From a virus: a stretch of 41,863 nt of DNA. A model generated the notes under the pieces. It worked only from the letters and a program-made list of their open reading frames with translations, did no database searches and was not told the DNA's origin. Both the position numbers and the translations under genes were made by a program. How positions within the stretch are numbered: position 1 is the first letter of the stretch; the number at the start of each line of letters is the position of its first letter. The DNA is taken from the IMG/VR virus record IMGVR_UViG_3300031576_000134, positions 1-41,863 of that record; one strand, written 5' to 3'. Below are positions 17,923-30,394 of the stretch, piece by piece.

Positions 17923-18386
17923 GCAATTCCATCGACCATCTCTACGCTCCGATGCGACCGCTGATATCGGGCGTGCTCGCGAAGGCCAACGAACTGCTCA
18001 AGCAGAGGCAAGACAACTTGCGAGTCGTCGTCCACGATACTCATCGCAGCTGGGAGCAGCAGGCTGCGAACTACGCCAAGGGGCGGACGACTCCGGGCAA
18101 GATCGTCACGAACGCGAAGCCCCAGGAGTCTGCACACTGCATCCTCACGCAAGGCGGATTGCCTGCCTCTATGGCGGCAGATCTATGGGTCCTCACGCCG
18201 GACGGCAAGCTCGTGCGCGATGCGCACCCAGCCTGGGCAGTGATTCCTTTCGCGGCCTATCTCGTCGCAGGAGATCGGCTCGCGATGGGAGCCGCTTTCT
18301 CGTCGATCCGCGGCGGTGACTGGCCCCATCTGGAATGGAATGGCTGGATGTCGCTGGTCACGAATGGCCAGATCAAGGTAGGCTGA
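17919..18386 (+). CDS. endolysin, M15 (VanY/L-Ala-D-Glu type) peptidase
   Basis: The 155-residue protein fits small phage M15 peptidases, zinc enzymes that cut the peptide stems of peptidoglycan. Visible motifs are the helix HRSWEQQAANYAKGRTTPG (residues about 43-61), the zinc motif S-A-H followed by AADLW (in place of SxHxxGxAxD), and DWPHLEW near residue 138, giving the last zinc His. It has no signal peptide, so a holin or similar is needed for access. I chose ATG 17919, which overlaps the upstream stop as ATGA. Two exact palindromes lie inside it at 18008 and 18149. Confidence 0.75.
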   Translation: MSNSIDHLYAPMRPLISGVLAKANELLKQRQDNLRVVVHDTHRSWEQQAANYAKGRTTPGKIVTNAKPQESAHCILTQGGLPASMAADLWVLTPDGKLVRDAHPAWAVIPFAAYLVAGDRLAMGAAFSSIRGGDWPHLEWNGWMSLVTNGQIKVG

Positions 18387-18396
18387 GGAATTCCTT

Positions 18397-18939
18397 ATGG
18401 ATCCTGGCCTCGATGTTGCGAACACCCTCATCGGCCTATTCATAGGCGGTGGTGGTCTGACGCTCCTGGCCAAAGGCGTCAACTCGATCATCAAAGTTTA
18501 TCGCGACGAGAAGGAATCCGAGCGTAGAGAGCGCAAGGAACTTCGCGATGAGGAGAGAGCCAACAGGAACGACGAGAGGAGCGCTCGAGAGAAGGGGATC
18601 AGCGACGCGCGAGCCGAGAGGCAAGCCGGATACGAACTCCGGGAGCGCGAGATCCAAGCGATGACTGAGCTGACGATCGCGAACCGCGAGCAAAGCTCGG
18701 AAATCAGGAGAGCCATCGAACGCATCGATGCGCTCATAGTAGAGATCAGGGCAGAGCGGATGGAGTTCATCGCTGATCGCTCTCACAAGCACCGGATCGA
18801 AGAAGAGCGCGAGCGCTACAACGACACCGGCAGGCATCAAGTGCAATCAGTAGAGAGGGTGGACGACCCAGATCGCTCCGGTAGGTACAGGACGCAACCG
18901 CAGGTTGATGACCTGGAAGGGACAGGGACCAGAAGATGA
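18397..18939 (+). CDS. membrane-anchored coiled-coil protein (holin or inner spanin candidate)
   Basis: The 180-residue product has one hydrophobic segment at residues 8-30 (VANTLIGLFIGGGGLTLLAKG) followed by about 110 residues of charged heptad-rich helix (many Arg and Glu). This layout, an N-terminal membrane anchor and a long coiled coil, is that of inner-membrane spanins. A single-span holin is an alternative. The next gene overlaps it by ATGA and encodes a small lipoprotein, which supports a two-component spanin. The last 40 residues are polar and disordered. Confidence 0.55.
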   Translation: MDPGLDVANTLIGLFIGGGGLTLLAKGVNSIIKVYRDEKESERRERKELRDEERANRNDERSAREKGISDARAERQAGYELREREIQAMTELTIANREQSSEIRRAIERIDALIVEIRAERMEFIADRSHKHRIEEERERYNDTGRHQVQSVERVDDPDRSGRYRTQPQVDDLEGTGTRR

Positions 18940-19355
18940 GGATGATAATCTCATTGCTGATCGGCGCGATGATGTTCGCGTCGATCGCATGTAGCGCCTC
19001 GTGCGCCACCAATACGACCGTTCGGGACAAGAACGCCTACGCGCTGGATGTCGCGTATCACCAGGACATGGAGACGCGTGCAGGCGCGACGATCCTGCGC
19101 CGAGCTTCGTCGCTGCCTCCGGCCGAATGCCAAGCTGACGCGGAGTTGGGGCTCGTGCTCCTGCACCGCTCCAGCTACCATGCGGACATGAGCCGGTACC
19201 TGGGAGGTCTGACCGATAAGCAGCCCGGTGATCCGCCGATGATCCCGAACGTGAACACGATCTGCACGACGACGATCTCGATGCGCAAGCGCGTCACCAA
19301 CTCGAACAACGACTGGAAGCTAGCCGCGGTCGGCTGGGAAGGAGCGGCGCAATGA
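18936..19355 (+). CDS. small lipoprotein, outer spanin candidate
   Basis: The 139-residue product opens with MRMIISLLIGAMMFASIACS, a signal peptide with a lipobox-like SIAC (Cys19). The rest is soluble and contains three more cysteines. It overlaps the upstream coiled-coil gene by ATGA and the downstream gene also by ATGA. In Gram-negative phages the outer-membrane lipoprotein partner of the spanin complex is often encoded just after, or inside, the inner spanin gene, as here. That role is inferred; no sequence identity to a known spanin is claimed. Confidence 0.55.
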   Translation: MRMIISLLIGAMMFASIACSASCATNTTVRDKNAYALDVAYHQDMETRAGATILRRASSLPPAECQADAELGLVLLHRSSYHADMSRYLGGLTDKQPGDPPMIPNVNTICTTTISMRKRVTNSNNDWKLAAVGWEGAAQ

Positions 19356-19726
19356 ACGAGGACCTCATCCGCAAGATCCTCGAGGGCCTCGGCGACAAGG
19401 GAGTCGAGGAGCTGAACGCGCTGCTCCACTCGATGAAGCCGAGGAACGATCTCGAGAAGATGCTCCTCAAGCTCGCCATGAACGCGCTCGCGGCCGGAGA
19501 GCCCATGGCGCTCCAGGCGATAGAGAAGATCCTGAACGGCCTGGTGAACCCCGGCGCTCCCGATGGCCTCTCGACCGAAGGGCTGTCGCCGACGGAGGCC
19601 TCGGACCTCCTCGCTGCCGTCCAGAAGTCGGAGATGGGCGAGCGGCAGGCGGCATTCACGATGCTCGACACGATCGGCGTCGCGCTCGGGAAGCTCGGCG
19701 CGGCGTTCCTGCGAGGGCTGATCTGA
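19352..19726 (+). CDS. hypothetical protein in the lysis group
   Basis: The 124-residue protein begins MNEDLIRKILEGLGDKGVEE and is almost wholly helical. Its last 25 residues (TMLDTIGVALGKLGAAFLRGLI) are amphipathic or hydrophobic and could associate with the membrane, so a role as a small holin or its partner is possible. There is no signal peptide and no cysteine. It overlaps the upstream lipoprotein gene by ATGA and ends 1 base before the next start. Codon usage is more biased to C and G in third positions than in the tail genes. Confidence 0.5.
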   Translation: MNEDLIRKILEGLGDKGVEELNALLHSMKPRNDLEKMLLKLAMNALAAGEPMALQAIEKILNGLVNPGAPDGLSTEGLSPTEASDLLAAVQKSEMGERQAAFTMLDTIGVALGKLGAAFLRGLI

Positions 19727-19727
19727 C

Positions 19728-20075
19728 ATGGCCGCTGCAGCGACCGTGTCCCTGGTCGGAGTTATCAGCGGGTTGCTCTCCGGAACCCGGAACATGCAGC
19801 CTGCAGACAACACGAGCGCTGCAGCAGTCGGGAAGCACGAGAAGATCACGCTCTCGTCTGGAGCCAACACCATCACGCCACCATCAGGCGCGACGATGGT
19901 GCTGATCGTACCTCCGGTCGCGAACGCGCAGAACATGACCCTGAAGGGCGTGACCGGTGACACCGGCATCGCCCTGGCGAAGACTCAGTGGGTCCTGCTG
20001 TCGCTGCAGTCGGTCTCGTCATTCGTGATCACTGCTGGAGGCACGATCACGGACGTCGAGTTCAACTGGATCTAG
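19728..20075 (+). CDS. hypothetical virion-like protein, last gene of the rightward block
   Basis: The 115-residue product starts MAAAATVSLVGVISGLLSG, a small hydrophobic region not followed by a cleavage motif, and then is beta-rich: NTITPPSGATMVLIVPP, LKGVTGDTGIALAKTQW and a closing DVEFNWI. This is the look of small phage decoration or tail-attached domains, but I cannot name it. Its stop codon TAG shares CTAG with the stop of the convergent gene, so there is no space between the two opposing units. Confidence 0.5.
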   Translation: MAAAATVSLVGVISGLLSGTRNMQPADNTSAAAVGKHEKITLSSGANTITPPSGATMVLIVPPVANAQNMTLKGVTGDTGIALAKTQWVLLSLQSVSSFVITAGGTITDVEFNWI

Positions 20076-20365
20076 TCCTCGCGATTCCAGCGCGGCTCAC
20101 GCGCTAGGAGCGCTCGAGCAGCATCTCGTTCCTTCACAGCCAGGTCATAGAAAGCCTGGTCTACCTCATGCATCACTCCCGGAGTCCCGTGAGTTCGCAA
20201 TTCCTCATGCGAGTCCAGTAGCGCTCGCAATTCCTCTTGCAGTAGCCCCACGACCTGGAATGGCTTCCCGTCGGGACCTTCTCCGGTAATTGAGACCTTC
20301 GCCTTTCCCTTCGGGTTCTCGACAGCCTCGCGGAGTTCCGCGATGCGGGCTGGCGTGAGGATCAC
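20072..20365 (-). CDS. hypothetical protein, last gene of the leftward block
   Basis: The 97-residue product starts at GTG 20365 (MILTPARIAELREAVEN), with GAGG 5 nt upstream and a GTGA overlap with the previous stop. A longer in-frame reading exists but lacks this support. It has a small beta core around KVSITGEGPDGKPFQVVG and a long C-terminal helix. I do not recognise it. It holds an exact palindrome at 20227-20240 and a near copy at 20197-20210, 30 bp apart. Confidence 0.55.
   Translation of the reverse strand: MILTPARIAELREAVENPKGKAKVSITGEGPDGKPFQVVGLLQEELRALLDSHEELRTHGTPGVMHEVDQAFYDLAVKERDAARALLAREPRWNRED
20089..20105 (+). terminator. possible terminator hairpin past the rightward block
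   Basis: AGCGCG (20089-20094) and CGCGCT (20100-20105) form a perfect 6-bp stem with a GCTCA loop, 14 bases after the last rightward stop codon. No U-run follows, and it lies within the convergent gene. Confidence 0.3.
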
Positions 20366-20766
20366 AGCGGCCTCAGAACCGAGAATGCCTCGCAACCCGG
20401 ATTGAGGCAGTGCTTCTCTTGTTTGGGGTCTGCTGGATCGACGACCAGCGGCGCACGGCATTTCTGGCACCAGTGCATTGCGAACCCAGACTCGATGAGG
20501 TCGTCGAACAGCGACAGCGCGATGTCGAGCAGCTGGTCCATGTCCTGTCGCATCTCGCGCACACCGACCTGCACGCTGACGCCGTTCGTCGTCTTCGTGA
20601 ATGTGACCGGTCCGGACGCGGACTCCATCGCGACGTCGATCATCTCGCGCATCTGCTTGCGCTGCATGAGCGCACCGAACAGATCGAGCAGCATCTTCCG
20701 GCGCTCAGCGCGCTCAGCTCCAGGCACGTCGATCGGCTTCTGGACATTGTCTACGGTGACTTCCAT
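20362..20766 (-). CDS. zinc-ribbon protein next to dUTPase
   Basis: The 134-residue product has a helical first part (AERRKMLLDLFGALMQRKQ, REMRQDMDQLLDIALSLFDD) and a C-terminal zinc ribbon with CQKC and a second CLNPGC pair (residues about 100-130). GGGAG precedes the ATG by about 7 nt. It overlaps the next gene by GTGA and lies 3 bases after dUTPase, so it belongs to the nucleotide-metabolism operon. It may bind nucleic acid or act in transcription, but no specific function is visible. Confidence 0.55.
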   Translation of the reverse strand: MEVTVDNVQKPIDVPGAERAERRKMLLDLFGALMQRKQMREMIDVAMESASGPVTFTKTTNGVSVQVGVREMRQDMDQLLDIALSLFDDLIESGFAMHWCQKCRAPLVVDPADPKQEKHCLNPGCEAFSVLRPL

Positions 20767-20769
20767 AAC

Positions 20770-21201
20770 TTATCTCCCTGATGACCCGAATCCGTAATTG
20801 CCTCGATCGCTCTGTGGAAGCTCCGGCACCTCCTCGAAATCCATCTGCAGGACGCGATGTGGAACGAGTTGCGCGAGCCTCGTATCTTTCGGCACGACGA
20901 TTACGTCGTCGGACAGGCTGATGACCTGCACGAAGAGTTCGCCACGGAACCCCGGGTCGACCACCGCGCTGACGACTTGCAGATGATGCCGATGAATCGT
21001 GCTTGATCTCGGGAGGATGGCTCCCCAGATGTCGTTCGGTAGAGCCAGGTGCACACCGGTCCGGATATTCGTCGTCCTCTTCTGACGCCAATTCGGATTG
21101 ACGCAGGTCTCCTCGAGCGTATAGAGGTCATATCCAGCGTCGTGGTCGTAGTTCTTCGACGGACGCGTAGCTCCAGACAGGAGCTTCATCTGGACCTTCA
21201 T
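20770..21201 (-). CDS. dut: dUTP pyrophosphatase (trimeric dUTPase)
   Basis: The 143-residue protein carries the trimeric dUTPase motifs in order: AGYDLY (I), PRSST (II), VVDPGFRGEL (III), a QLV/RLAQLVPH region (IV) and a C-terminal RGNYGFGSSGR (V). It hydrolyses dUTP to dUMP, keeping uracil out of DNA and supplying dUMP. I chose ATG 21201 (MKVQMKLLSG), with GGAGG 5 nt upstream and the family-typical start. The frame stays open to an ATG at 21321, which would add 40 residues with four cysteines (MFRLNCGPACRNASECQRTG) but has no ribosome site. It lies between a zinc-ribbon gene and purZ. Confidence 0.9.
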   Translation of the reverse strand: MKVQMKLLSGATRPSKNYDHDAGYDLYTLEETCVNPNWRQKRTTNIRTGVHLALPNDIWGAILPRSSTIHRHHLQVVSAVVDPGFRGELFVQVISLSDDVIVVPKDTRLAQLVPHRVLQMDFEEVPELPQSDRGNYGFGSSGR

Positions 21202-21330
21202 CGGCGCCTCCACATCTGTGTCCGGTAGCGGCTCTAGCATCGATCGAGTAGCCATGCACAGCCCAGTGCGCTGGCACTCGCTCGCATTCCGGCATGCCGG
21301 CCCACAATTCAGACGGAACATCTTATTGGT

Positions 21331-22413
21331 TCATCGGAGGTTCAGTGTCGGCGCTCGGTCGATGCAGGTCCAGCCTTTGGCGGGGTCCCAGGCCGTGCCG
21401 ATCAGACGCACGAACACCGAGAATGTGGACTCGACGTAGTAGATGAACTGCTGCGCCTTCGGCGACAGCGATTCGAACTTCACCTTGCCCTCATCCTCTG
21501 GGGAGAGGTAGTCCATGAACGTCAGCGCGATCCACGCTGGATCATTCAGCCAGACTGCCTTCCGCATCAGCGGCTCATCCCACTCGCCGATGCGCCTGAT
21601 CTTCTTCGTCACAGTCGTCATCTCGACGACCTTCTTGCCGACGCGCTCGGACATGTTCTCCCATGTCAGCTCGCGGTGCATCGGTCCCGACGGTCCTGCG
21701 ACGCGGATCGGGTAGGTGCGCGCGACGAGCACGACGTCCGAGACCCATTGCGGAGGGAGGCCTGCGTCGGCAGCGAACTGCGCCGCGTTCGTGTCCTGCG
21801 TGGTGACGTGAGGCCAGGCGCCGTGGATCAGCGAGAGCCCACAGCCCTGCGTTCCCTCGAGCAAGGCACGCTTGCCGGAACTGACCATGTCCCGGACCAG
21901 GGTCGTCGAGTCCTCGACCCGGACCTTGAGACCTGCCAGTTCCGGGCAGTGCTGCGCCAGGCGGAAGCGCTCCGGGTCGCGCGAAAGCCGGTCAACGCGG
22001 GCTGCTCCGACTCCCTCTCCGGTCGACCCGATCCGGGCATGGAGAGCCCCGTCGACGCCTCCTTCGGCGGCGTGGTGGCGCTGCTCGAGGATACCGGCCG
22101 CGGAGTCGATCACCAACCTGTAGTTGAGGTCGTCGACCCCATCTCTGGTCAGCATGTCGATCTCGGCCTGGAGGATCTGGAGGTTGACGAGCGCACCGGG
22201 ACCGATCACCAGGAGGCAGTCGGGGTTCGTCCATGCGCAGGGGATGCTCTGCATCTTGTAGAGCTTGCTCTGGTGGACGAACGAGTGACCGGCGTTCGGT
22301 GCACCGGTGCGGATCGAGATATCGAAGTCCGCGGACATGTAGTGAGCTACGACGCCCTTGCCCTCAGATCCCAGCTGCGCTCCGACGAGAGCGACGACCT
22401 TACCGCGCTTCAT
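21331..22413 (-). CDS. purZ: PurZ, 2-aminoadenylosuccinate synthetase
   Basis: The 360-residue protein is an adenylosuccinate synthetase homologue: GAQLGSEGKG at residues 11-20, GAPNAGHSF near 37-45, EGTQGCGLSLIHG, and TTVTKKIRRIGEWDE. Canonical PurA has GDEGKGK with catalytic Asp; here it is Ser16, the change that defines PurZ of 2-aminoadenine (Z) phages. PurZ joins dGMP and aspartate to make a precursor that host PurB and kinases turn into dZTP. Length is close to known PurZ and shorter than PurA (about 430). ATG 22413 has GGAG 8 nt upstream and overlaps the polymerase stop as ATGA, so the two are coupled. Codons farther upstream in frame overlap the polymerase and are not used. Confidence 0.9.
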   Translation of the reverse strand: MKRGKVVALVGAQLGSEGKGVVAHYMSADFDISIRTGAPNAGHSFVHQSKLYKMQSIPCAWTNPDCLLVIGPGALVNLQILQAEIDMLTRDGVDDLNYRLVIDSAAGILEQRHHAAEGGVDGALHARIGSTGEGVGAARVDRLSRDPERFRLAQHCPELAGLKVRVEDSTTLVRDMVSSGKRALLEGTQGCGLSLIHGAWPHVTTQDTNAAQFAADAGLPPQWVSDVVLVARTYPIRVAGPSGPMHRELTWENMSERVGKKVVEMTTVTKKIRRIGEWDEPLMRKAVWLNDPAWIALTFMDYLSPEDEGKVKFESLSPKAQQFIYYVESTFSVFVRLIGTAWDPAKGWTCIDRAPTLNLR

Positions 22414-24107
22414 TCCGTGATCTCCACGACCTTCGCAGTTCCCCACGTCGGCCCAGCCTTGAAGTCGACCTTCATAGGGATAGAGCACCACGGCGTGTCC
22501 GTCATGATGCGGTTGATCTCTGGCAGCAGGCGACTGCGGTCGCCACGTTTCATCTGGAACAAGATGCTATCGTGCACCGGCAGCAGGATACGCAGTCCGA
22601 GTTCCTTACGCAACCGCGTCAGCGCGATGCGATTCATCTCGGCGACACCGCCTTGGATGAGGTTCGATGACGCCTTATGCGTCGGAGCCGTCGCAGTGTT
22701 GTAGTGTCGCAACCGACCAGTAAATAGGCGGATGTAGCCTCGTGATGCTGCCTGCGCTTCGGCCTGTCGATAGAGTGGTCGGAACCCTGGATAGTTGCGA
22801 TGATACTTGTCGAGGTAGCTCTTCGCTTGGCTGCGCGGGATGTGCAGGCGCTCCGATAGCGTAGCAGCACCGACGCCGTAGATGACGGAGAAGTTCAGCT
22901 GCTTCGCTGCGAAGCGTGGAATACCGATCTCCTGCGCAGTCTCGGAGTGCAGGTCAGCACCGCGGATGAGCTTGTCGCCCATCCTGGTCTCCTTGGCGTA
23001 GTGGCATGCGACGCGCAATTCGGCCTGCGAGTAGTCAGCCTCGCCGATCTCGTCCTCGTCGTTATCAGGACCGAAGACGTCCTTCACCTTCCAGATCTCG
23101 TTGGTAGCCTTCGGCACCGCTTGCAGCGGAGGCTTCTCGCAAGACAACCTGCTGGAGATCGTACCGATGAGATTGAGGTTCGGATGCAGGACCTCGTTCG
23201 CGTCCATCATCTCGAGGAACCGCCGATAATAGTTGGCGTTCACTCGATACCATGACCGGAATGCACGCAGCTCCGTGATACCGGGACGGTCTGGCATCAG
23301 CTCGAGGAATTCGCGAGCGGTGCTGGCGACGCCCAACCACTTCTGCACCTGCTTGGCGGAGTTGAGGTTGATCTTGTAGCCTGCGAGTTCTTCGATGATG
23401 GCTCGCATCTCTTCGACCTTGCGGTCGGCCTCCTCGATGTACTGCCTCATCAGGGGAGTGATGAGCTTCATCCCCTTGCATTCGATCTCGCTGACGATCA
23501 GCTGGTATTCGTTCACCTCCTGCCATATGTCGTAGATCTTCCAGGTCTTGAGATGTGGAATGTAGAAATCGCGGAGGCCGCGCGTGAGCCGTACGTCCTG
23601 GCACGCGTATGGAGCCACCTGTTCTGGCGGCAGCTTCCACATATGACCTTTGCCGAGGCCTCGCTCGAGCAGCAAGTCGTCGAGGTCCGCTGCCTCCTGT
23701 GAAGCGCCAGGACCGAGGTACTTGTCGCCGAGAGCCTTGAGCTTGAAGCTCGGCTCGTTCTCGTTCATGAGGTGAGCCTGACACTTCACCTCGTGGATAT
23801 GTGCTGGCAGAGGCACGCCATCCTGAATCATCGTCTGCATATCGAACGTGTAGTTGAAGCCGACGTAGTTCTTATCGGGTCGCGACAGTTCGCGCTGGAA
23901 GTCTGGGAACTTCTCCGGAGGCAAGTTGCCTTGCACGTGCCGGAATGGGAAGTAGTAGGCCTCGCTGTCAGCCTCGACCGCGATGCCGACCAGTCGATCA
24001 CCATTCCACGGACGAAGCCCTGTGGTCTCAGTATCGACGATCAATTCCTTGCATCGCGTGATGCGCTCCATCGCAGGAGCGTAGGCTTCCGGTGTATTGA
24101 CGAGCAT
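22410..24107 (-). CDS. dpoZ: family A DNA polymerase with 3'-5' exonuclease (DpoZ-like)
   Basis: The 565-residue protein has an exonuclease domain (VDTETTG with D25 and E27, NYTFD near 85, YACQD near 167) and a family A polymerase domain: motif A DYSQAELR near residue 358, motif B with KQLNFSVIYG near 400, motif C VHDS near 509. It lacks a 5'-3' exonuclease domain, like T7 and other phage polymerases. Direct coupling to purZ is the arrangement of DpoZ, the enzyme group of aminoadenine siphophages that favours dZTP. I infer DpoZ from context; family A membership is secure. GAGG precedes the ATG by 9 nt. Confidence 0.85.
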   Translation of the reverse strand: MLVNTPEAYAPAMERITRCKELIVDTETTGLRPWNGDRLVGIAVEADSEAYYFPFRHVQGNLPPEKFPDFQRELSRPDKNYVGFNYTFDMQTMIQDGVPLPAHIHEVKCQAHLMNENEPSFKLKALGDKYLGPGASQEAADLDDLLLERGLGKGHMWKLPPEQVAPYACQDVRLTRGLRDFYIPHLKTWKIYDIWQEVNEYQLIVSEIECKGMKLITPLMRQYIEEADRKVEEMRAIIEELAGYKINLNSAKQVQKWLGVASTAREFLELMPDRPGITELRAFRSWYRVNANYYRRFLEMMDANEVLHPNLNLIGTISSRLSCEKPPLQAVPKATNEIWKVKDVFGPDNDEDEIGEADYSQAELRVACHYAKETRMGDKLIRGADLHSETAQEIGIPRFAAKQLNFSVIYGVGAATLSERLHIPRSQAKSYLDKYHRNYPGFRPLYRQAEAQAASRGYIRLFTGRLRHYNTATAPTHKASSNLIQGGVAEMNRIALTRLRKELGLRILLPVHDSILFQMKRGDRSRLLPEINRIMTDTPWCSIPMKVDFKAGPTWGTAKVVEITE

Positions 24108-24110
24108 CGA

Positions 24111-24368
24111 TCAGAACCTCGTCGGGATGGTGATATCGCCGCACCATGGGCACTCGAGGTACTCGACACCCTGCAAGATCTCCGTCGAGATTGGGTGCAC
24201 GCAGCCGTTCGGGCAGAGCGGCTTCTTGCATCCAGCACAGATGCCGGGAGACTGCAGTCGCAGGAGATGGACCTCATCGGGCAGTGACATGCGCTCGCCC
24301 GGAGGTCCGGACTTCTGGATCTTGTCAGCGGTGACGCTGAGGCTCAGCAGGAATGAGGTCAGAGACAT
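24111..24368 (-). CDS. small zinc-finger protein upstream of the polymerase
   Basis: The 85-residue protein has a four-to-six-cysteine zinc-binding region: CAGCKKPLCPNGC (residues about 45-57) and CPWC near the end. The N-terminal half is helical and weakly hydrophobic. GGAGG lies 9 nt before ATG 24368; an upstream in-frame extension to 24602 is Arg-rich and looks like shadow coding. Its stop lies 3 bases before the polymerase start, so the two are co-translated. It could be a DNA-binding or polymerase accessory factor. Confidence 0.5.
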   Translation of the reverse strand: MSLTSFLLSLSVTADKIQKSGPPGERMSLPDEVHLLRLQSPGICAGCKKPLCPNGCVHPISTEILQGVEYLECPWCGDITIPTRF

Positions 24369-24737
24369 TCGTCGATCCCTCCAGAATCGAGCAACGGAAT
24401 AGCGAAGGAGTGCAGCAGGTCGCCGTCTAGGGCTCTCGCCCTTCCATGGGCCTTCTCGGAGGCGCCTCCCGTGCGTCGACGAATTGGACACTATGCCGCA
24501 TCGCCGTCGTCTGGGCATCCGAGCACGAGAACCTGCTGCACTCCTCCTCTCGGGCTTCCACCGATCTCCGAGCTTAGCGTACTCGTCGACGTCGTGCGCC
24601 ACCTATATCGCTACCGTCCACGGGCCAGAGACGATACGGTTCGATCGTCGCAACCTTGGTGTGTAGCTGGGTCACGCCTGCACGCTCTTACTAGGGCTCG
24701 ACCACGTCCCTACGGCACTTCGCGGTCTGACGAGCCA
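24369..24737. other. 369-bp gap without a convincing gene
   Basis: No frame on either strand shows a good ribosome site, family motif or codon pattern. There is a perfect 12-bp palindrome GGAGGCGCCTCC at 24458-24469 and a small GGGC/GCCC hairpin just before it. An isolated GGTTCGATC at 24638 looks like a tRNA T-loop but has no matching stems. It separates the SSB-like gene from the polymerase operon and may hold a terminator or an unrecognised small RNA. Confidence 0.4.
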
Positions 24738-25274
24738 TCAGAACGGGATGTCGCTGTCCTTGAACTTGCCCTCGAACATCTTGCCGGTCGACTCCGGATG
24801 CGGCAGCGCCTTCTTCACGCTCGAGCGCTTGACGTCCTGGTACTCGTCGTCGACGAGGTGGACGATGCACATGCGCCGGATCGCGTCGGCCTTCTTGAAC
24901 TTGGAGTTCTTCTCCTTGCCGGTGCTGAGGCCGAACGCGAGCAGCGTCTCGCGGAGCTTCCACATCGCGGCCGGAGTGATCGCGGTGTAGATGCGGAACT
25001 CGCGGCCGTTCAGCTTCTGATCACCGGGCTCGATCTTCATCTTGCCGCTCGCGTTACCGCCGACCTTCTGCGCGAGGTTGCCGGTGAGGCGCAGCTGCCA
25101 GACCCACATCGGGTTGCCGGCGTTGCTCTGCCCCTTGTCGAGGTCGGTGAGCACCGCCTCGTAGTACCCGGTCGGGAGGAGGAGTCCTCCGCCGTTGTCT
25201 TCGCCGAGATCGACGTCGAACTCGTCGTCGTCGTTCTCCTGCGGTGCTCCGAATGGATTGCTTGCGTCGACCAT
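24738..25274 (-). CDS. DUF669-like single-stranded DNA-binding protein
   Basis: The 178-residue protein has an acidic N-terminus, then LPTGYYEAVLTDLDKGQSN, MWVWQLRL and a beta-rich core, the pattern of DUF669 phage proteins, which act as single-strand DNA-binding partners of recombinases. The last residues, KFKDSDIPF, copy the acidic-hydrophobic SSB tail that docks repair proteins in bacteria. It lies 48 bp downstream of a Sak4-like gene, the usual partner. The ribosome site GGGAG is about 12 nt before the ATG, rather far. Confidence 0.7.
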   Translation of the reverse strand: MVDASNPFGAPQENDDDEFDVDLGEDNGGGLLLPTGYYEAVLTDLDKGQSNAGNPMWVWQLRLTGNLAQKVGGNASGKMKIEPGDQKLNGREFRIYTAITPAAMWKLRETLLAFGLSTGKEKNSKFKKADAIRRMCIVHLVDDEYQDVKRSSVKKALPHPESTGKMFEGKFKDSDIPF

Positions 25275-25322
25275 CTTCTGCGTGTTCTCCCTTGGGTTCT
25301 GTCAGCACTCCTAAGGCTGACG

Positions 25323-26141
25323 CTATTTGCTCGTGGCCTCGGCCTTGAGCAGGCGATCGTAGATCTCGGCGAGGTGCGGCTTCCCGGACGGCAGGTCGAC
25401 GCGCTCACCGAGCGCTGCCGCGAATGCCGGACCACGGGTCTTCGCCTTCCAGGCACCGCGCTCCTGCGTGAGCAGGCCGCGCTTGCCCTCGCCGTCCTGG
25501 AACAGGTACCAGACGAAGTCCATATACCCGCGCACGGACTCGTTCAGTTTCGCGGTGAAGCTCGGCAGCACCGCCTCGAGCTTGGGCTCGACTCCGCGAG
25601 CGACGCCCTTGGCGTAGACCTCCTTCGTCAGCGCCGTGATGATGACGTGATATGGCGCATCGCGGAACCAGCGGAACAGACGACGGAGGCGCGCGGTATC
25701 CTTGCCGTAGTCCTCCTGGTAGATGTCGTCGACCGAGAACTCCTCGCCGTCCTTCGGGGTCTTGCCCTTCTTGGTATCGCGCTGAATGCGCGAGCGCACT
25801 GCGGACTCGAGGCTCATCGTCTGCATCTCGGTGCCAGAGTCGATGATCACGGTCTTGATGCTCGCGTAGCGAGGATCTTTGTTGACGAGCGCCCAGAACG
25901 TGGCCTCGAGGTCCTCCGGCGAAGCGATGTCGACCTTGTGGACGCGGTCGCGTACCGACTTCTCGAGACCGAGGAAGCCTCCCTCGAAGTTCAGGAACAG
26001 CACCTCGCGCATGTCCGGATGCTCGACTGCGGTAGCAGCGAACGTCGTCTTCCCGACACCAGGAGGTCCGACGATCAGACCCTTGAACTTCAGGTTATCC
26101 TTCGTGATCGTCGCTGGTGTCGGTGCTGCAGCAGTGGCCAT
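25323..26141 (-). CDS. Sak4-like RecA-fold recombinase ATPase
   Basis: The 272-residue protein has Walker A GPPGVGKT near residue 25 and Walker B with TVIIDS near residue 96, in the layout of phage AAA_24/Sak4 proteins. These bind single-stranded DNA and promote annealing or strand exchange in cooperation with a phage SSB. I chose ATG 26141 (MATAAAPT) instead of the GTG three codons earlier because an extended promoter ends 7 nt upstream, predicting a leaderless start. The SSB-like gene follows, and this promoter heads the operon that carries the polymerase and purZ. Confidence 0.75.
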   Translation of the reverse strand: MATAAAPTPATITKDNLKFKGLIVGPPGVGKTTFAATAVEHPDMREVLFLNFEGGFLGLEKSVRDRVHKVDIASPEDLEATFWALVNKDPRYASIKTVIIDSGTEMQTMSLESAVRSRIQRDTKKGKTPKDGEEFSVDDIYQEDYGKDTARLRRLFRWFRDAPYHVIITALTKEVYAKGVARGVEPKLEAVLPSFTAKLNESVRGYMDFVWYLFQDGEGKRGLLTQERGAWKAKTRGPAFAAALGERVDLPSGKPHLAEIYDRLLKAEATSK

Positions 26142-26178
26142 CGAGATCACCCTATCACATCTCAGCTATCGGCGTCAA
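26142..26178 (-). promoter_or_regulatory. leaderless promoter of the Sak4-polymerase-purZ operon
   Basis: On the minus strand, TTGACG (26173-26178) is followed by an 18-nt spacer ending in TGA and the -10 TAGGGT (26149-26154). Seven bases separate the -10 from ATG 26141, so transcription should begin at or very near the A of the start codon. It lies in the end of the MazZ-like gene. Confidence 0.65.
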
Positions 26179-26869
26179 CTGAGTCGTTGCCGCTGTCGTC
26201 GAACCACATCATGAACAGCAAGCAGCAAACCGCATGCGCCAGATGAGGGAGTCCGGTCTCGGGGTCGCGACGCTCACCTGCAAGTCGGCTTGCAATGTGT
26301 CGCATCGCCGCAGACGCATAGCGGTCCTCCCACTCGACGATCTTCTTCCAGTTGTTCGGCGGGTACTTCTTCGCACCGTAGGTCAGCACGCGCACGACGT
26401 CACCGATCTGCTCCCACGGCAGCAGTGACCATCGGTCCTTACCTGCGTCGGCCTTCACGCCGTGCTGTGGAGGTCTCAGCACGCGCCCATCGGACAAGCG
26501 GAAGGAGTAACCATCAGGATCGATCGGCGGCAGCGATTGATTACGGACGTCGACGATTCCGATGCTCTCAACCTTCACGCTCTCGACGATCGGGAACATG
26601 GCAGCTGCGCTCGGCATCTTCGGGACATCGGTGTGCTCGATCGCGATCCTGGTCAGCTCCGGGTCGATGCGAACCTGGATACCGTTGGAGTCTACCTCCA
26701 CGACCTTCTCACAACCACGCACCGCGCATTCGACATACTGCGAGCCGCCCGGGGGAGGCGGAGACCGATGGCGACTGGTCGGGCTCTTCACGCAGTTCTG
26801 GATGTCCTCGGGGTTATCGTTGATATCCCATCGGTACGAGCAATACTCGCATTCCAGCAACACCTTCAT
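26162..26869 (-). CDS. mazZ: MazZ-like dGTP/dATP pyrophosphohydrolase
   Basis: The 235-residue product has a C-terminal domain (residues about 135-230) of the dATP/dGTP diphosphohydrolase type found in MazZ: KADAGKDRWSLLPW, VVRVLTYGAKKYPPNNW, AAMRHIASRLAGE, ETGLPHLAHAVCCLLFM. Such MazG-fold enzymes cleave dGTP to dGMP, the substrate PurZ needs, and reduce competing purines. The N-terminal 75 residues hold CEYC and CAVRGC pairs and may be a zinc module, an unusual addition. The ATG directly follows the upstream stop, and GAGGAG overlaps that stop. The domain also occurs in phages without Z-DNA, so the Z role rests on purZ. Confidence 0.7.
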   Translation of the reverse strand: MKVLLECEYCSYRWDINDNPEDIQNCVKSPTSRHRSPPPPGGSQYVECAVRGCEKVVEVDSNGIQVRIDPELTRIAIEHTDVPKMPSAAAMFPIVESVKVESIGIVDVRNQSLPPIDPDGYSFRLSDGRVLRPPQHGVKADAGKDRWSLLPWEQIGDVVRVLTYGAKKYPPNNWKKIVEWEDRYASAAMRHIASRLAGERRDPETGLPHLAHAVCCLLFMMWFDDSGNDSVDADS

Positions 26870-28075
26870 CTACTCCTCGAACTCCGCCGACAAGAGCACG
26901 GGGAGTCGGTCGTGTCCACGCAGGCGATACTGCGTCGCGAGGAGGAATTCGGTGTCTCCAGCACGAAGCTCGGTCATGCAGAATTCGCGGACGCGGCACA
27001 TGCCGCAGGTCATCGGATTCAGCGATCGGTAGGTTGCTGGGCTGCGCGCGAGGTTGATCGTCGCCTGCTCGGCATCTCTCCAGATGTTCTGCACTTCGGT
27101 CGCTGATCGATAGGACTTCGACCAGCGCCAGAACTCAACCTCGGACAGCTTGTCCTTCATGTCCTGGTATTCGAGCGGATTCAGACCGACGGCGAGCAGC
27201 GCGGCCTCGTAGGTCTCCCAGTCCGTCGCGCACGCTGCTCGGCTCATCGAGCCGTCTTTATTGCGCTTCGGTTGCTTCGGGAGTGCAGCGCGGATCTGGT
27301 GCTGCGCCGACCCACCGATGTTGCTCGCGAGGTCCGGCATCATCTGCGAGATCAGATGCTGATAGATTGCCATCTGGAGATTGAACTCCTCATGGCTCTC
27401 TGGTGTCATGGCTTCACGTACCTTGTGATCGATCAGCCAGACGTTGCCGTTCTCGATTTCGCGTGCAATCCAATCGACACGGCCGTTGAACGCGTTCCAG
27501 TCCGGAACCGGAACGGTGAACTGGAATTCGACCATCGGCTTGCCGCCGTGCACGATGGTCTCGAACCTGTGCCCAATATCTAGCTGCTTCATTGTGCGCG
27601 ACGTGATGCCGTAGGACTTCTCACGGATGTCGCTGAGGATCTCGTGCTCGTCCTCGCTGAACAGGTGCTCGAAGCCCTTGGTGATCTTCGCGTACCAACC
27701 TTCGATGGCCTGCTCGACAGATTGCTGGAGCAGCGCCGCAGCGAGGCCGGCATGCACCGCGATGCCGAGGTCGATCTTCGGCTTATCGAAGCGAGGCTCG
27801 AGGCCAAGGTCGTAGATGAGCACGTACGCGTGTCGGCAGCGCAGCCAGGTCGCGAGACGCGAGTACGACATCTCCTGCGCCCAGTCGCTCTGGAACTCGC
27901 GCAGCGTGATGCCGTAGTGCTCGAGCGCGATCTCGAGGTTGTCGAACGTCGGATCGCCGACGATGACGACACCGCGATCACCGCAAGTCACCTTGCCATC
28001 ATCATGAACCCAGAAGTAGAGAGGTCCACGAATCCATTCCTGCGGCCTATCGTATCGATGCGACGTGGTGGGCAT
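26870..28075 (-). CDS. PD-(D/E)XK nuclease, Cas4/RecB-like with Fe-S cysteines
   Basis: The 401-residue protein has a RecB/Cas4 nuclease pattern: SYSRLATWLRCRHAYVL near residue 80 with the first cysteine, GIAVHAGLAAAL, the catalytic WLIDHKV (D and K), QMAIYQHL, and a C-terminal CGMCRVREFC that supplies three more cysteines for a 4Fe-4S cluster. Such phage exonucleases process DNA ends for recombination with an SSB and annealing protein, here encoded downstream. ATG 28075 lies 7 nt after a -10 element, so it is probably a leaderless start. An exact palindrome lies at 27983. Confidence 0.75.
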   Translation of the reverse strand: MPTTSHRYDRPQEWIRGPLYFWVHDDGKVTCGDRGVVIVGDPTFDNLEIALEHYGITLREFQSDWAQEMSYSRLATWLRCRHAYVLIYDLGLEPRFDKPKIDLGIAVHAGLAAALLQQSVEQAIEGWYAKITKGFEHLFSEDEHEILSDIREKSYGITSRTMKQLDIGHRFETIVHGGKPMVEFQFTVPVPDWNAFNGRVDWIAREIENGNVWLIDHKVREAMTPESHEEFNLQMAIYQHLISQMMPDLASNIGGSAQHQIRAALPKQPKRNKDGSMSRAACATDWETYEAALLAVGLNPLEYQDMKDKLSEVEFWRWSKSYRSATEVQNIWRDAEQATINLARSPATYRSLNPMTCGMCRVREFCMTELRAGDTEFLLATQYRLRGHDRLPVLLSAEFEE

Positions 28076-28124
28076 GCGGCGCAGAGTAGCACCGCTCAGG
28101 CAGGACTGGCAAGTAGCTAGTTGC
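28076..28124 (-). promoter_or_regulatory. leaderless promoter with 16-bp operator on its -35 box
   Basis: TTGCCA (28107-28112), an 18-nt spacer ending in TGC and TACTCT (28083-28088) stand 7 nt before ATG 28075. The 16-bp palindrome GCAAC-TAGCTA-CTTGC (minus strand; 28109-28124) overlaps the -35 by four bases, as expected of a repressor or activator site. Confidence 0.6.
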
Positions 28125-28130
28125 GAACTG

Positions 28131-28262
28131 TTAGAACCAGTCTCGAACAGCCCAGAACCAGCAATATCGACTCTCGACCGGAGTCACCCCTGCGACAGCC
28201 ATATCGGACAGATAACATTGGTAGAGAGCTTCGCTCCGAATTGCGAGCAGCAACTGCTTCAC
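28131..28262 (-). CDS. small hypothetical protein coupled to the helicase gene
   Basis: This 43-codon frame starts at GTG 28262 inside the last codons of the helicase gene as a GTGA overlap. The helicase end carries AGGAGG 7 nt before it, an ideal ribosome site. The product begins MKQLLLAIRSEALYQCYLSD and ends ESRYCWFWAVRDWF, rich in aromatic residues at the end. I do not recognise it. The ribosome site and overlap are the evidence that it is real; the codons themselves are too few to judge. Confidence 0.5.
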   Translation of the reverse strand: MKQLLLAIRSEALYQCYLSDMAVAGVTPVESRYCWFWAVRDWF

Positions 28263-30370
28263 GACACTTCCTCCTTGAACAAGATCGGGAATCGATTGGC
28301 CAGCTGACGATGATAGCGCGAGAGCATCATCCACGCCAAGCGGAGGTGCTTCTCTTCCTTCATCCCGGTCGCGTCGACCCAGCGAGCGCACGCCGCGTCG
28401 GACTTCCCGAAGCCCTGTCCGTCCAGGGTCAGCGCGCCGTCGCAGACCGAGAGCATGCTGGCCATCGCCATTCGGATCGCGCGCACCGTCTCCTCGGTGA
28501 GCAGCCTGGATTCGACGCGATGCTGCTTGGCCTGCTCGCGCTCGAGCCAGCCGTCGACGCGCTCGGAGGCCTGCTCCTGGCGCTCGGAGGCCTGGGCCTG
28601 CTGTTCGGCCTCGATCGCGGCCTGACGCCGTGCTTCGGCGTCAGCGTCGGACTCCTCGTGGAACAAGGACGCGGTGACCTTCGGTGCCTCGGCCTTCACC
28701 CTGGTCTCGATCGCAGCCTGGAACAGCTTGATCTTCTCGGACAGGAGGTCCTGCACGTGAAGATCGAGCGGATGATTGGAGACCATGCGCATGATCTGGA
28801 TGGACGACGCGCGCTGACCGATGCGGCGCACCCGATCCTCGGCCTGGCTGTTCGCGGCCGGAGTCCAGTCGAGGTCAACGAAAAGGACGTTCGACGCATG
28901 CGTCAGCGTGAGCCCGAACCCGCCAGCGCGAATCGTCAGCCCGACGCCCAGCAGCTGCCCAGCCTGGAATTTCTCGACGATGGCCTGGCGATCGGCCGGT
29001 GCGGTGTCGCCGGTGATTACAGCCCAGCCCTCGCGGTCGGCGAGAGCGTCGATCGGTGCACGGTGCGCCGAGAACACGAGCAGCGGCGTAGCGGAGTCCT
29101 CGAACTGCTCGACCACCTCGAACATCGCCGGAATCCGGGACTCAGCCAGATCCGCACGGATCGAGGACATCTCGGTGAAGTCCGGCAGCCCACCGAAGTC
29201 ACCGGAGGTGATGCAGTCCTCCATCCAGTCGGCGTAGATCTCGTCCATGCGGATCGAGACTTCGTCACCGATGTTGTTGACGATGATCTCCTTGTAGATC
29301 TTCGAGGGCAGGTCAGGCATGACCTCTTCCTTCGTGCGGCGCATCATCACGCGGCGCAGGCGCTCCGGCACCTCGGGGTTCGGGCTGCCGAACTCCCAAC
29401 CCCACCGACCGCGATAGCCGTTGAAGCAGCGCACGAAGCCCATCCATCCACCGAACACCTCGCGAGCCATGCCACCAGCGGAGAGCAGGCCGTAGAGTTC
29501 CTGGGGCTTGTTCATGAGCGGCGTGCCGGTGAGGAACCAGGCTTTGCCGCACGCGTCGGCGAGACGCGTGATCCGCTTGCTGCGCTCGGCCTTCGGGTTC
29601 TTGACGGCTTGCGCCTCGTCGATGATCAGCGTGCAGTCCGAGTAGTCCTTGCCTTCGAGGTCGGTGAGCATCGGCGGCATGATGTCGTAGTTCAGGATGA
29701 CGATGGTCTTCGGCTCCGGCACCGCGAGTTCGCGCTGCTTCTTGGCGAGGACCTCGACCGCGAACTCCGGTCGCCAGCGCCGGATCTCGGCCTGCCAGTT
29801 ATACTTCAGGGAGTTCGGGCAGATAACGAACACACGCGCATCGTCGGCGAGAGCCATGAGCGCCTGCACGGTCTTGCCGAGACCCATGTCGTCGGCGAGC
29901 AGCGTGCGCTTCCTCGACGCGAGGAACTCGACGCCGCTGACCTGGAACGGGAACAGCGCCGCGGACATCGCGCGACCCGTGGCCTTCACCTGTGCCTCGG
30001 GCTTCGCGTAGACCTTCAGCTCGGGAGCGACGTCGAGTGCAAGCTGACTTGCGATCTCGAGGACGCGAGCGCGATTGGCGATCTCGAGGCTCACCGTCCA
30101 GTGCTTCTTCTCGGGGTTCCAGCGCGCACCAGGCATCGCGCGCACCAGGGCAAGGTTGTTCGGCTCGTACGGCATGATCAGCGACCCGTCGGCGAGCAGC
30201 ACGCGCTTCGCCGGACCGGTCTCGGCCTGGAGGCCCAGAGCGCGAGCACACGCTGCGCTTGTGCAGACGACTTTCCACGCTCCGAGCTTGGACTTGAACG
30301 CGAAATCTTCGCCTGCAGCGACCGGAACCTTGCAGTGCTCGCACTTGCCTGCGTACTTGTTCTGGAACAT
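28259..30370 (-). CDS. SNF2-family DNA helicase with N-terminal zinc finger
   Basis: The 703-residue protein starts with a zinc finger (KCEHCKVPVAAGEDF then CTSAAC, residues 9-40), followed by an SNF2-type helicase: Walker A DDMGLGKT near residue 163, LIIDEAQAVKN (motif II, DEAQ), FLTGTPLMN (III), and C-terminal motifs GVGLTIRAGGFGLTLT and DRVRRIGQ. SNF2 enzymes move on double-stranded DNA and remodel forks or protein-DNA complexes. The last 150 residues are charged helix. I chose ATG 30370, with AAGGAAG 8 nt upstream, over the GTG at 30379. A long hairpin holding a palindrome precedes the gene. Confidence 0.8.
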   Translation of the reverse strand: MFQNKYAGKCEHCKVPVAAGEDFAFKSKLGAWKVVCTSAACARALGLQAETGPAKRVLLADGSLIMPYEPNNLALVRAMPGARWNPEKKHWTVSLEIANRARVLEIASQLALDVAPELKVYAKPEAQVKATGRAMSAALFPFQVSGVEFLASRKRTLLADDMGLGKTVQALMALADDARVFVICPNSLKYNWQAEIRRWRPEFAVEVLAKKQRELAVPEPKTIVILNYDIMPPMLTDLEGKDYSDCTLIIDEAQAVKNPKAERSKRITRLADACGKAWFLTGTPLMNKPQELYGLLSAGGMAREVFGGWMGFVRCFNGYRGRWGWEFGSPNPEVPERLRRVMMRRTKEEVMPDLPSKIYKEIIVNNIGDEVSIRMDEIYADWMEDCITSGDFGGLPDFTEMSSIRADLAESRIPAMFEVVEQFEDSATPLLVFSAHRAPIDALADREGWAVITGDTAPADRQAIVEKFQAGQLLGVGLTIRAGGFGLTLTHASNVLFVDLDWTPAANSQAEDRVRRIGQRASSIQIMRMVSNHPLDLHVQDLLSEKIKLFQAAIETRVKAEAPKVTASLFHEESDADAEARRQAAIEAEQQAQASERQEQASERVDGWLEREQAKQHRVESRLLTEETVRAIRMAMASMLSVCDGALTLDGQGFGKSDAACARWVDATGMKEEKHLRLAWMMLSRYHRQLANRFPILFKEEVS

Positions 30371-30394
30371 CCTATCCACTTCCTTCCTGGGACG

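What the first reader, a model, noticed from the sequence alone, without database searches (positions are those of the whole stretch)
20770..26869. Probable Z-genome (2-aminoadenine) phage: purZ, DpoZ-like polymerase and MazZ together
Seen: the PurA homologue has GSEGKG, with Ser16 where PurA has the catalytic Asp; its gene overlaps a family A polymerase gene by ATGA; a dATP/dGTP diphosphohydrolase domain gene lies 2 genes upstream of the Sak4/SSB pair; dUTPase follows. Known: the Asp-to-Ser change and linkage to DpoZ define PurZ systems in siphophages such as PhiVC8. Inference: adenine in this phage DNA is replaced by diaminopurine, which would change its restriction behaviour, melting and regulator recognition.
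Basis: partly seen in the sequence, partly recalled or inferred. Interest (0 to 1): 0.92.

Follow-up and report, generated by a model that had tools for sequence, protein, structure and literature searches.

The report
Third lineage of Z-DNA phage genes
This uncultivated phage carries a compact gene set that very probably makes 2-aminoadenine and puts it into its DNA instead of adenine, but its key enzyme, its DNA polymerase and its nucleotide-clearing enzymes belong to an uncultivated lineage separate from the two Z-DNA phage lineages already described.

Summary
In detail: a Ser16 PurA homologue overlaps a family A polymerase gene by ATGA, a dUTPase-fold gene follows, and a DUF5664 gene lies upstream of Sak4. 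The Z-genome reading is well supported, but the labels need correcting.

(1) PurZ belongs to a third viral clade (99/97 support, known only from metagenomes), outside published PurZ and PurZ0. It has PurZ-type residues at 10 of 11 diagnostic positions and the GTP-type Asp301 of PurZ0.

(2) The polymerase is not a DpoZ: it keeps Tyr410 where DpoZ has Phe459, lacks the three insertions and sits in its own PolA clade. Yet close relatives always carry a PurA-family gene right after it. The invariant motif-6 Asn is Ser481 in this lineage, Gly548 in phiVC8-type DpoZ, and Asn in all PurZ-less controls.

(3) There is no MazZ (DUF550) and no DatZ. The supposed dUTPase carries a DutZ-type signature, so DutZ plus DUF5664 probably clear dATP and dGTP.

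(4) Asp-to-Ser alone proves little: chromosomes of many phyla carry Ser/Gly paralogues in an RNase H–PurZ–DCD–kinase operon.

Verdict: new variant of a known kind. Base identity and polymerase preference remain unmeasured. An MT-A70 gene is the main odd note.

The parts
21331..22413 (-). purZ, third-lineage succino-2-aminodeoxyadenylate synthetase (Ser16; Asp301 predicts GTP as phosphate donor); ATGA overlap with polA
   Evidence: PF00709 2.4e-54, phrog_1211 3.8e-72; clade 99/97; 10 of 11 diagnostic columns PurZ-type; AF2 pLDDT 92, TM 0.83 to PurZ0 7vf6
22410..24107 (-). Family A DNA polymerase with 3'-5' exonuclease domain; candidate Z polymerase of a third lineage (Tyr410, Ser481)
   Evidence: PF00476 6e-61, PF01612 1.5e-10; tree; co-occurrence with PurZ; motif-6 site
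20770..21321 (-). DutZ-type dUTPase-fold protein, predicted dATP/dGTP(/dUTP) diphosphohydrolase
   Evidence: PF00692 4e-23; 40% identity to Ghobes DutZ, 4e-24; RSST plus hairpin shortened by 2 aa, as in the other PurZ-linked loci
26162..26869 (-). DUF5664 (PF18909) protein, predicted dATP/dGTP diphosphohydrolase; no DUF550/MazZ domain
   Evidence: PF18909 2.6e-30, phrog_801 8.6e-39; DUF5664 beside PurZ in sister phages
25323..26150 (-). Sak4-like recombinase, conserved member of the replication cassette
   Evidence: phrog_124 1.8e-33, PF13479 2e-20
24738..25274 (-). SSB-like protein of the cassette (identity inferred from position and conservation)
   Evidence: phrog_3724 4.9e-11, function unknown; conserved between Sak4 and Pol in the clade
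24111..24602 (-). small ORF with CxxC pairs (zinc-ribbon-like) between SSB and polA; function unknown
   Evidence: no Pfam or PHROG match
26870..28075 (-). PD-(D/E)XK nuclease of the cassette
   Evidence: PF12705 6.2e-16
28259..30379 (-). SNF2 helicase of the cassette
   Evidence: PF00176 3.4e-29
35030..36892 (-). PrimPol / AAA replication protein, conserved in the same phages
   Evidence: PF09250 4.9e-34; 40% homologues in many of the clade's loci

Best explanation
The genes form a third, uncultivated lineage of the phage 2-aminoadenine (Z) pathway. The DutZ-type protein and the DUF5664 protein split dATP and dGTP to monophosphates; this starves the pool of dATP and supplies dGMP (inferred from characterised relatives). 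PurZ, with Ser16 in place of the PurA catalytic Asp, joins aspartate to dGMP using GTP (predicted) to give succino-2-aminodeoxyadenylate. Host PurB and kinases convert that to dZTP; no phage PurB was found. The partner polymerase, with the PrimPol, copies the genome and places Z opposite T. Its selectivity, if any, would come from a route other than the Tyr-to-Phe change of known DpoZ; the Asn-to-Ser change at the terminal-pair-sensing motif-6 position (Ser481) is the candidate. Shown here: gene content, phylogeny, diagnostic residues, co-occurrence. Inferred: enzyme activities, polymerase preference, extent of adenine replacement.
For: PurZ lies inside the Ser/Gly superclade (100/100), in a viral clade of 21 rows at 99/97, with PurZ-type residues at 10 of 11 columns that separate PurZ and PurZ0 from PurA, and Asp301 as in PurZ0 and PurA. 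The model is confident and matches PurZ0 and PurZ crystal structures. Every polymerase at 36% identity or more to this one, on a contig with about 0.7 kb or more downstream, is followed within about 1.2 kb by a PurA-family gene (PurZ, or the divergent Asp form); polymerases under 30% almost never are. 27 of 30 clade loci carry DutZ and/or DUF5664 near PurZ. All PurZ-linked viral 'dUTPases' found carry RSS; RSS with a shortened hairpin was seen in no control. Motif-6 Asn is Ser in this lineage and Gly in phiVC8-type DpoZ, but Asn in all 31 PurZ-less records with usable flanks. Wayne DUF5664 and Ghobes DutZ hydrolyse dATP and dGTP in vitro (PMC12884076).
Against: PurZ scores 236 bits against the NCBIfam PurZ model, below its cut-off of 300. 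The polymerase lacks the DpoZ signatures. Known PurZ0-phage polymerases keep Asn at the motif-6 site, so that change is not required for Z use. No DatZ. An MT-A70 adenine methylase gene (33906-35033) is odd in a phage without adenine. No chemistry or enzyme assay exists for any member of this clade.
Confidence: 0.8

Rival explanations
1. dZTP is made, but the polymerase does not discriminate; Z content is set by the nucleotide pool alone and the genome holds a mixture of A and Z.
For: Polymerase keeps Tyr410 and lacks DpoZ insertions; no DatZ; MT-A70 gene present, with homologues in some other PurZ loci. S-2L is a precedent for a non-selective polymerase (PMC8065100).
Against: Two pool enzymes predicted to remove dATP are present. 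In S-2L, pool clearing with a non-selective polymerase goes with full replacement. The tight Pol-PurZ pairing and the Ser481 change suggest a specialised polymerase.
Confidence: 0.3
2. The gene is an ordinary PurA that boosts AMP/dATP supply during infection.
For: PurA fold; best TM-score is to archaeal PurA; Asp301 and GTP-type pocket as in PurA.
Against: Ser16 replaces the catalytic Asp; Thr266, Ile236, Arg232 and Ser130 are PurZ-type; phylogeny; the pool enzymes would destroy dATP.
Confidence: 0.04
3. The enzyme makes a different purine adduct, not dZ, as might be true for the divergent Asp-bearing sister group.
For: Sister phages with the same cassette carry a PurA-family protein with a remodelled aspartate loop, so the cassette can host other chemistries.
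Against: The window protein keeps the aspartate loop TTVTKK.RR and NAGH exactly as in PurZ and PurZ0.
Confidence: 0.05

Closest known systems
PurZ0 phages (Arthrobacter Wayne/Preamble, Gordonia Ghobes, Microbacterium Milani)
   Same: Ser at the catalytic site, Asp at the donor-base position (GTP type), DutZ-type dUTPase near purZ; DUF5664 in the Arthrobacter members; PolA next to or near purZ
   Different: PurZ in a separate clade (PurZ0 100/100 excludes it, though a sister relation is not rejected, AU p 0.38); polymerase not in DpoZ-1, Tyr not Phe; no DmtZ or PurB found
PurZ phages (Vibrio VP2/phiVC8, Acinetobacter SH-Ab 15497 type, cyanophage S-2L)
   Same: PurZ chemistry predicted; motif-6 Asn replaced in the polymerase (Gly548 in phiVC8 type, Ser481 here)
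   Different: No DatZ, no MazZ/DUF550; Asp301 rather than Asn/Gln; polymerase lacks Phe459 and the three insertions
Archaeal PurA (Pyrococcus horikoshii 5k7x)
   Same: Short PurA fold, TM 0.87, GTP-type pocket
   Different: Asp at the catalytic site, Gly at the Thr266 position, Thr at the Ile236 position
Chromosomal Ser/Gly PurA-like paralogues of bacteria and archaea
   Same: Ser or Gly at the catalytic site and most PurZ-type residues
   Different: NSGH instead of NAGH; lie in a conserved RNase H-PurZ-DCD-dNK operon, no polymerase

Membership tests
PurZ sensu lato (succino-2-aminodeoxyadenylate synthetase) | Ser in place of PurA catalytic Asp | tested here: met
   Ser16; all 21 clade members Ser. 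Not sufficient alone: chromosomal paralogues also Ser/Gly
PurZ sensu lato (succino-2-aminodeoxyadenylate synthetase) | Other PurZ-type residues (for example Thr266 in the Asp loop, Ile236, Arg232, Ser130) | tested here: met
   10 of 11 diagnostic columns
PurZ sensu lato (succino-2-aminodeoxyadenylate synthetase) | Curated NCBIfam PurZ cut-off (NF038379, 300 bits) | tested here: not met
   236 bits
PurZ sensu lato (succino-2-aminodeoxyadenylate synthetase) | dGMP + Asp activity | not testable with these tools
   needs assay
PurZ subclade (phiVC8/S-2L) | Phylogenetic placement; Asn/Gln at donor-base site | tested here: not met
   clade 97/98 excludes window (forcing them together AU p 0.098); Asp301
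PurZ0 subclade | Phylogenetic placement within PurZ0 | tested here: not met
   PurZ0 100/100 excludes window clade; sister relation not rejected
DpoZ polymerase | Phe at the Y766-equivalent (Phe459), the one change shared by both DpoZ clades (PMC8599892) | tested here: not met
   Tyr410; PurZ0 phage Hiyaa also has Tyr
DpoZ polymerase | phiVC8-type insertions 1-3 | tested here: not met
   absent
DpoZ polymerase | Placement in DpoZ-1 or DpoZ-2 | tested here: not met
   own PolA clade 100/97; NCBIfam DpoZ models far below cut-off
DpoZ polymerase | Preference for dZTP over dATP | not testable with these tools
   needs primer extension
MazZ | DUF550 / MazG-HisE domain | tested here: not met
   only DUF5664 found; MazZ tblastn best E 0.26
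DUF5664 dATP/dGTP hydrolase | PF18909 domain | tested here: met
   104.7 bits, cut-off 27
DutZ | Sequence signature RSS plus shortened uracil hairpin seen in most DutZ proteins | tested here: met
   RSST, gap 16
DutZ | Monophyly with published DutZ | tested here: inconclusive
   grouped with PurZ-linked dUTPases away from Ceto and most cellular Dut (98/90), inner order unresolved; one cellular row with a wrong ORF was in the set

The most novel reading that the evidence does not exclude
This is a third, independently assembled Z-DNA system whose polymerase recognises Z by changing the motif-6 asparagine that senses the terminal base pair (to Ser here, to Gly in phiVC8-type DpoZ), without the Tyr-to-Phe change thought to mark Z polymerases.
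Probability: 0.35. Interest if true: 0.72.

Novelty: new variant of a known kind. Interest (0 to 1): 0.56.

Why it matters
Published work recognises two Z-phage lineages, built from NCBI viruses only. This clade, seen only in metagenomes, adds a third with a different polymerase and a mixed pool-clearing set, which supports the view that Z-DNA was assembled several times. Comparing polymerases with the same cassette but with and without PurZ makes the open question of how a polymerase prefers Z over A directly testable at one residue. It also shows that the Asp-to-Ser change alone should not be used to call Z-phages.

Tried and rejected
DNA-level search for related phages in INPHARED: no match for 18000-24000. 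Solved-structure search of the DUF5664 protein: nothing useful. Search for DatZ, MazZ, DmtZ and PurB in the window: no credible match. dUTPase tree: too short to resolve DutZ monophyly, and one cellular Dut row (L205) was extracted from the wrong ORF and sits on a branch of length 10, so I rely on the motif instead. RSS alone as a DutZ marker was rejected: T5-like VSe12 and Streptomyces phage Belfort have RSS but a long hairpin, and Hiyaa has RSS with the long form. Forcing the window clade with PurZ0 or with PurZ is not significantly worse (AU p 0.38 and 0.098), so deep branching stays open. Host: terminase hits are mixed, mostly actinobacterial phages at about 40% identity, so no host is claimed.

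Full report
What was checked. The window is a single IMG/VR virus record of 41,863 bases. The minus-strand block 20770-30379 reads, in transcription order: SNF2 helicase, PD-(D/E)XK nuclease, DUF5664 protein, Sak4, an SSB-like protein, a small CxxC protein, PolA, PurZ, dUTPase-fold protein. The polymerase stop and purZ start share ATGA. Head, tail and terminase genes flank the block, so this is a tailed phage.

PurZ. The best isolate match is only about 36% identical and the DNA has no relative in INPHARED. Two alignment searches of viral contigs and one of genomes brought about 160 relatives. A careful tree of 90 rows places the protein in a Ser/Gly superclade (100/100) and there in a viral clade of 21 rows (99/97) separate from PurZ (97/98) and PurZ0 (100/100); the deeper order is unresolved, and a sister relation to PurZ0 is not rejected. 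At 11 columns that separate PurA from PurZ plus PurZ0, the window has the PurZ-type residue at 10; at the donor-base column it has Asp301 like PurZ0 and PurA, where PurZ has Asn or Gln. [quoted passage not shown] That PurZ0 uses GTP and PurZ ATP is from my own knowledge of the PurZ0 structure paper; PMC12884076 prints the reverse in one sentence, against its own introduction. The AF2 model (pLDDT 92) matches archaeal PurA (TM 0.87), PurZ0 7vf6 (0.83) and PurZ (0.78).

Ser16 is not enough. Ser or Gly at this site also occurs in short PurA paralogues on chromosomes of many phyla; several of the genomes checked also hold a normal long PurA. These paralogues differ from the phage proteins in having NSGH rather than NAGH.

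Polymerase. Both published DpoZ clades share one change, Phe459 for Tyr (PMC8599892). The window has Tyr410 at that column, as have its relatives; the three phiVC8-type insertions are absent; and the tree puts it in its own PolA clade (100/97). So it is not a DpoZ by the tested features. Its link to PurZ is nevertheless strong. Among contigs whose polymerase is at least 36% identical and which continue for about 0.7 kb or more, all carry a PurA-family gene within about 1.2 kb; three without it end 122-446 bases after the polymerase. Relatives at 33-35% with the same cassette (L246, L247, L251, L254) lack PurZ, and below 30% it is absent apart from PurZ0-type loci and a few others. Comparing the groups points to one site: motif 6, four residues before the QG, is Ser481 here and in all PurZ-linked members of the lineage, in the separate polymerases of L019 and L030 and in L250, and in the divergent group; it is Gly548 in phiVC8-type DpoZ; it is Asn in all 31 PurZ-less records with usable flanks and in PurZ0-phage polymerases. 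Several of the listed loci are the same contig fetched twice, so distinct contigs number about 26 with PurZ including the window. By alignment to the motif this is E. coli N845 (own placement), which has been proposed to sense the shape of the terminal base pair (PMC3347538). That this causes Z preference is a hypothesis.

Pool enzymes. The dUTPase-fold protein is 40% identical to Ghobes DutZ (4e-24). It has RSST instead of RSG, and a hairpin two residues shorter between that motif and the IID/VVD motif. All PurZ-linked viral copies found carry RSS, nearly all with the short hairpin; cellular Dut proteins and PurZ-less phages carry RSG, or RSS with a long hairpin, or RSK. Ghobes and Wayne DutZ and Wayne DUF5664 hydrolyse dATP and dGTP (PMC12884076). 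In 27 of 30 loci of the window clade DutZ and/or DUF5664 lies near PurZ; in L021, L023 and L041 DUF5664 stands right after PurZ where DutZ stands in others. MazZ (DUF550), DatZ, DmtZ and PurB were not found in the window.

Judgement. The Z-pathway reading is likely (0.8). The system works like known Z systems but is a separate lineage with a polymerase that fails the DpoZ tests. Complete replacement of adenine is less certain, given no DatZ, an untested polymerase and an MT-A70 gene (homologues in L021, L025, L064 and L239).

Noticed in passing
Genome loci L106-L174, for example L133:7891-12152, L110:7958-12715, L107:8410-12175: Chromosomal Ser/Gly PurZ-like paralogues sit in a conserved operon in bacteria and archaea of many phyla: RNase_H_2 nuclease, PurZ-like, DCD-like (dCTP deaminase fold), deoxynucleoside kinase. 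No PADLOC system matches well and a literature search found nothing. Possibly a cellular 2-aminopurine deoxynucleotide or defence pathway.
   Followed up: partly
L235, L238, L239, L240, L241, L245, L249, L252: Sister phages with the same cassette and a related polymerase carry a PurA-family protein that keeps catalytic Asp and His but has NAEH for NAGH, Glu for an aspartate-loop Arg (R273E) and a rebuilt aspartate loop. It may join something other than aspartate to a purine, that is, make another modified base.
   Followed up: partly
window 33906-35033 (-): MT-A70 family adenine methyltransferase in a phage predicted to lack adenine; homologues at 28-34% in L021, L025, L064 and L239. It might act on Z, or argue for residual adenine.
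   Followed up: partly
L246, L247, L251, L254: Same SNF2-PDDEXK-Sak4-Pol cassette without any PurZ; natural controls for what changes when PurZ is present.
   Followed up: partly
L098, L100, L101, L102, L103, L105, L115, L168: PurZ-like Ser proteins in Patescibacteria and DPANN assemblies, several branching among viral sequences; possibly viruses of these ultrasmall cells binned with the host.
   Followed up: no
L005 (Streptomyces phage Hiyaa): An isolate PurZ0 phage whose DNA polymerase I keeps Tyr at the Phe459 site and whose dUTPase has RSS with a long hairpin, so neither mark is universal among PurZ phages.
   Followed up: no
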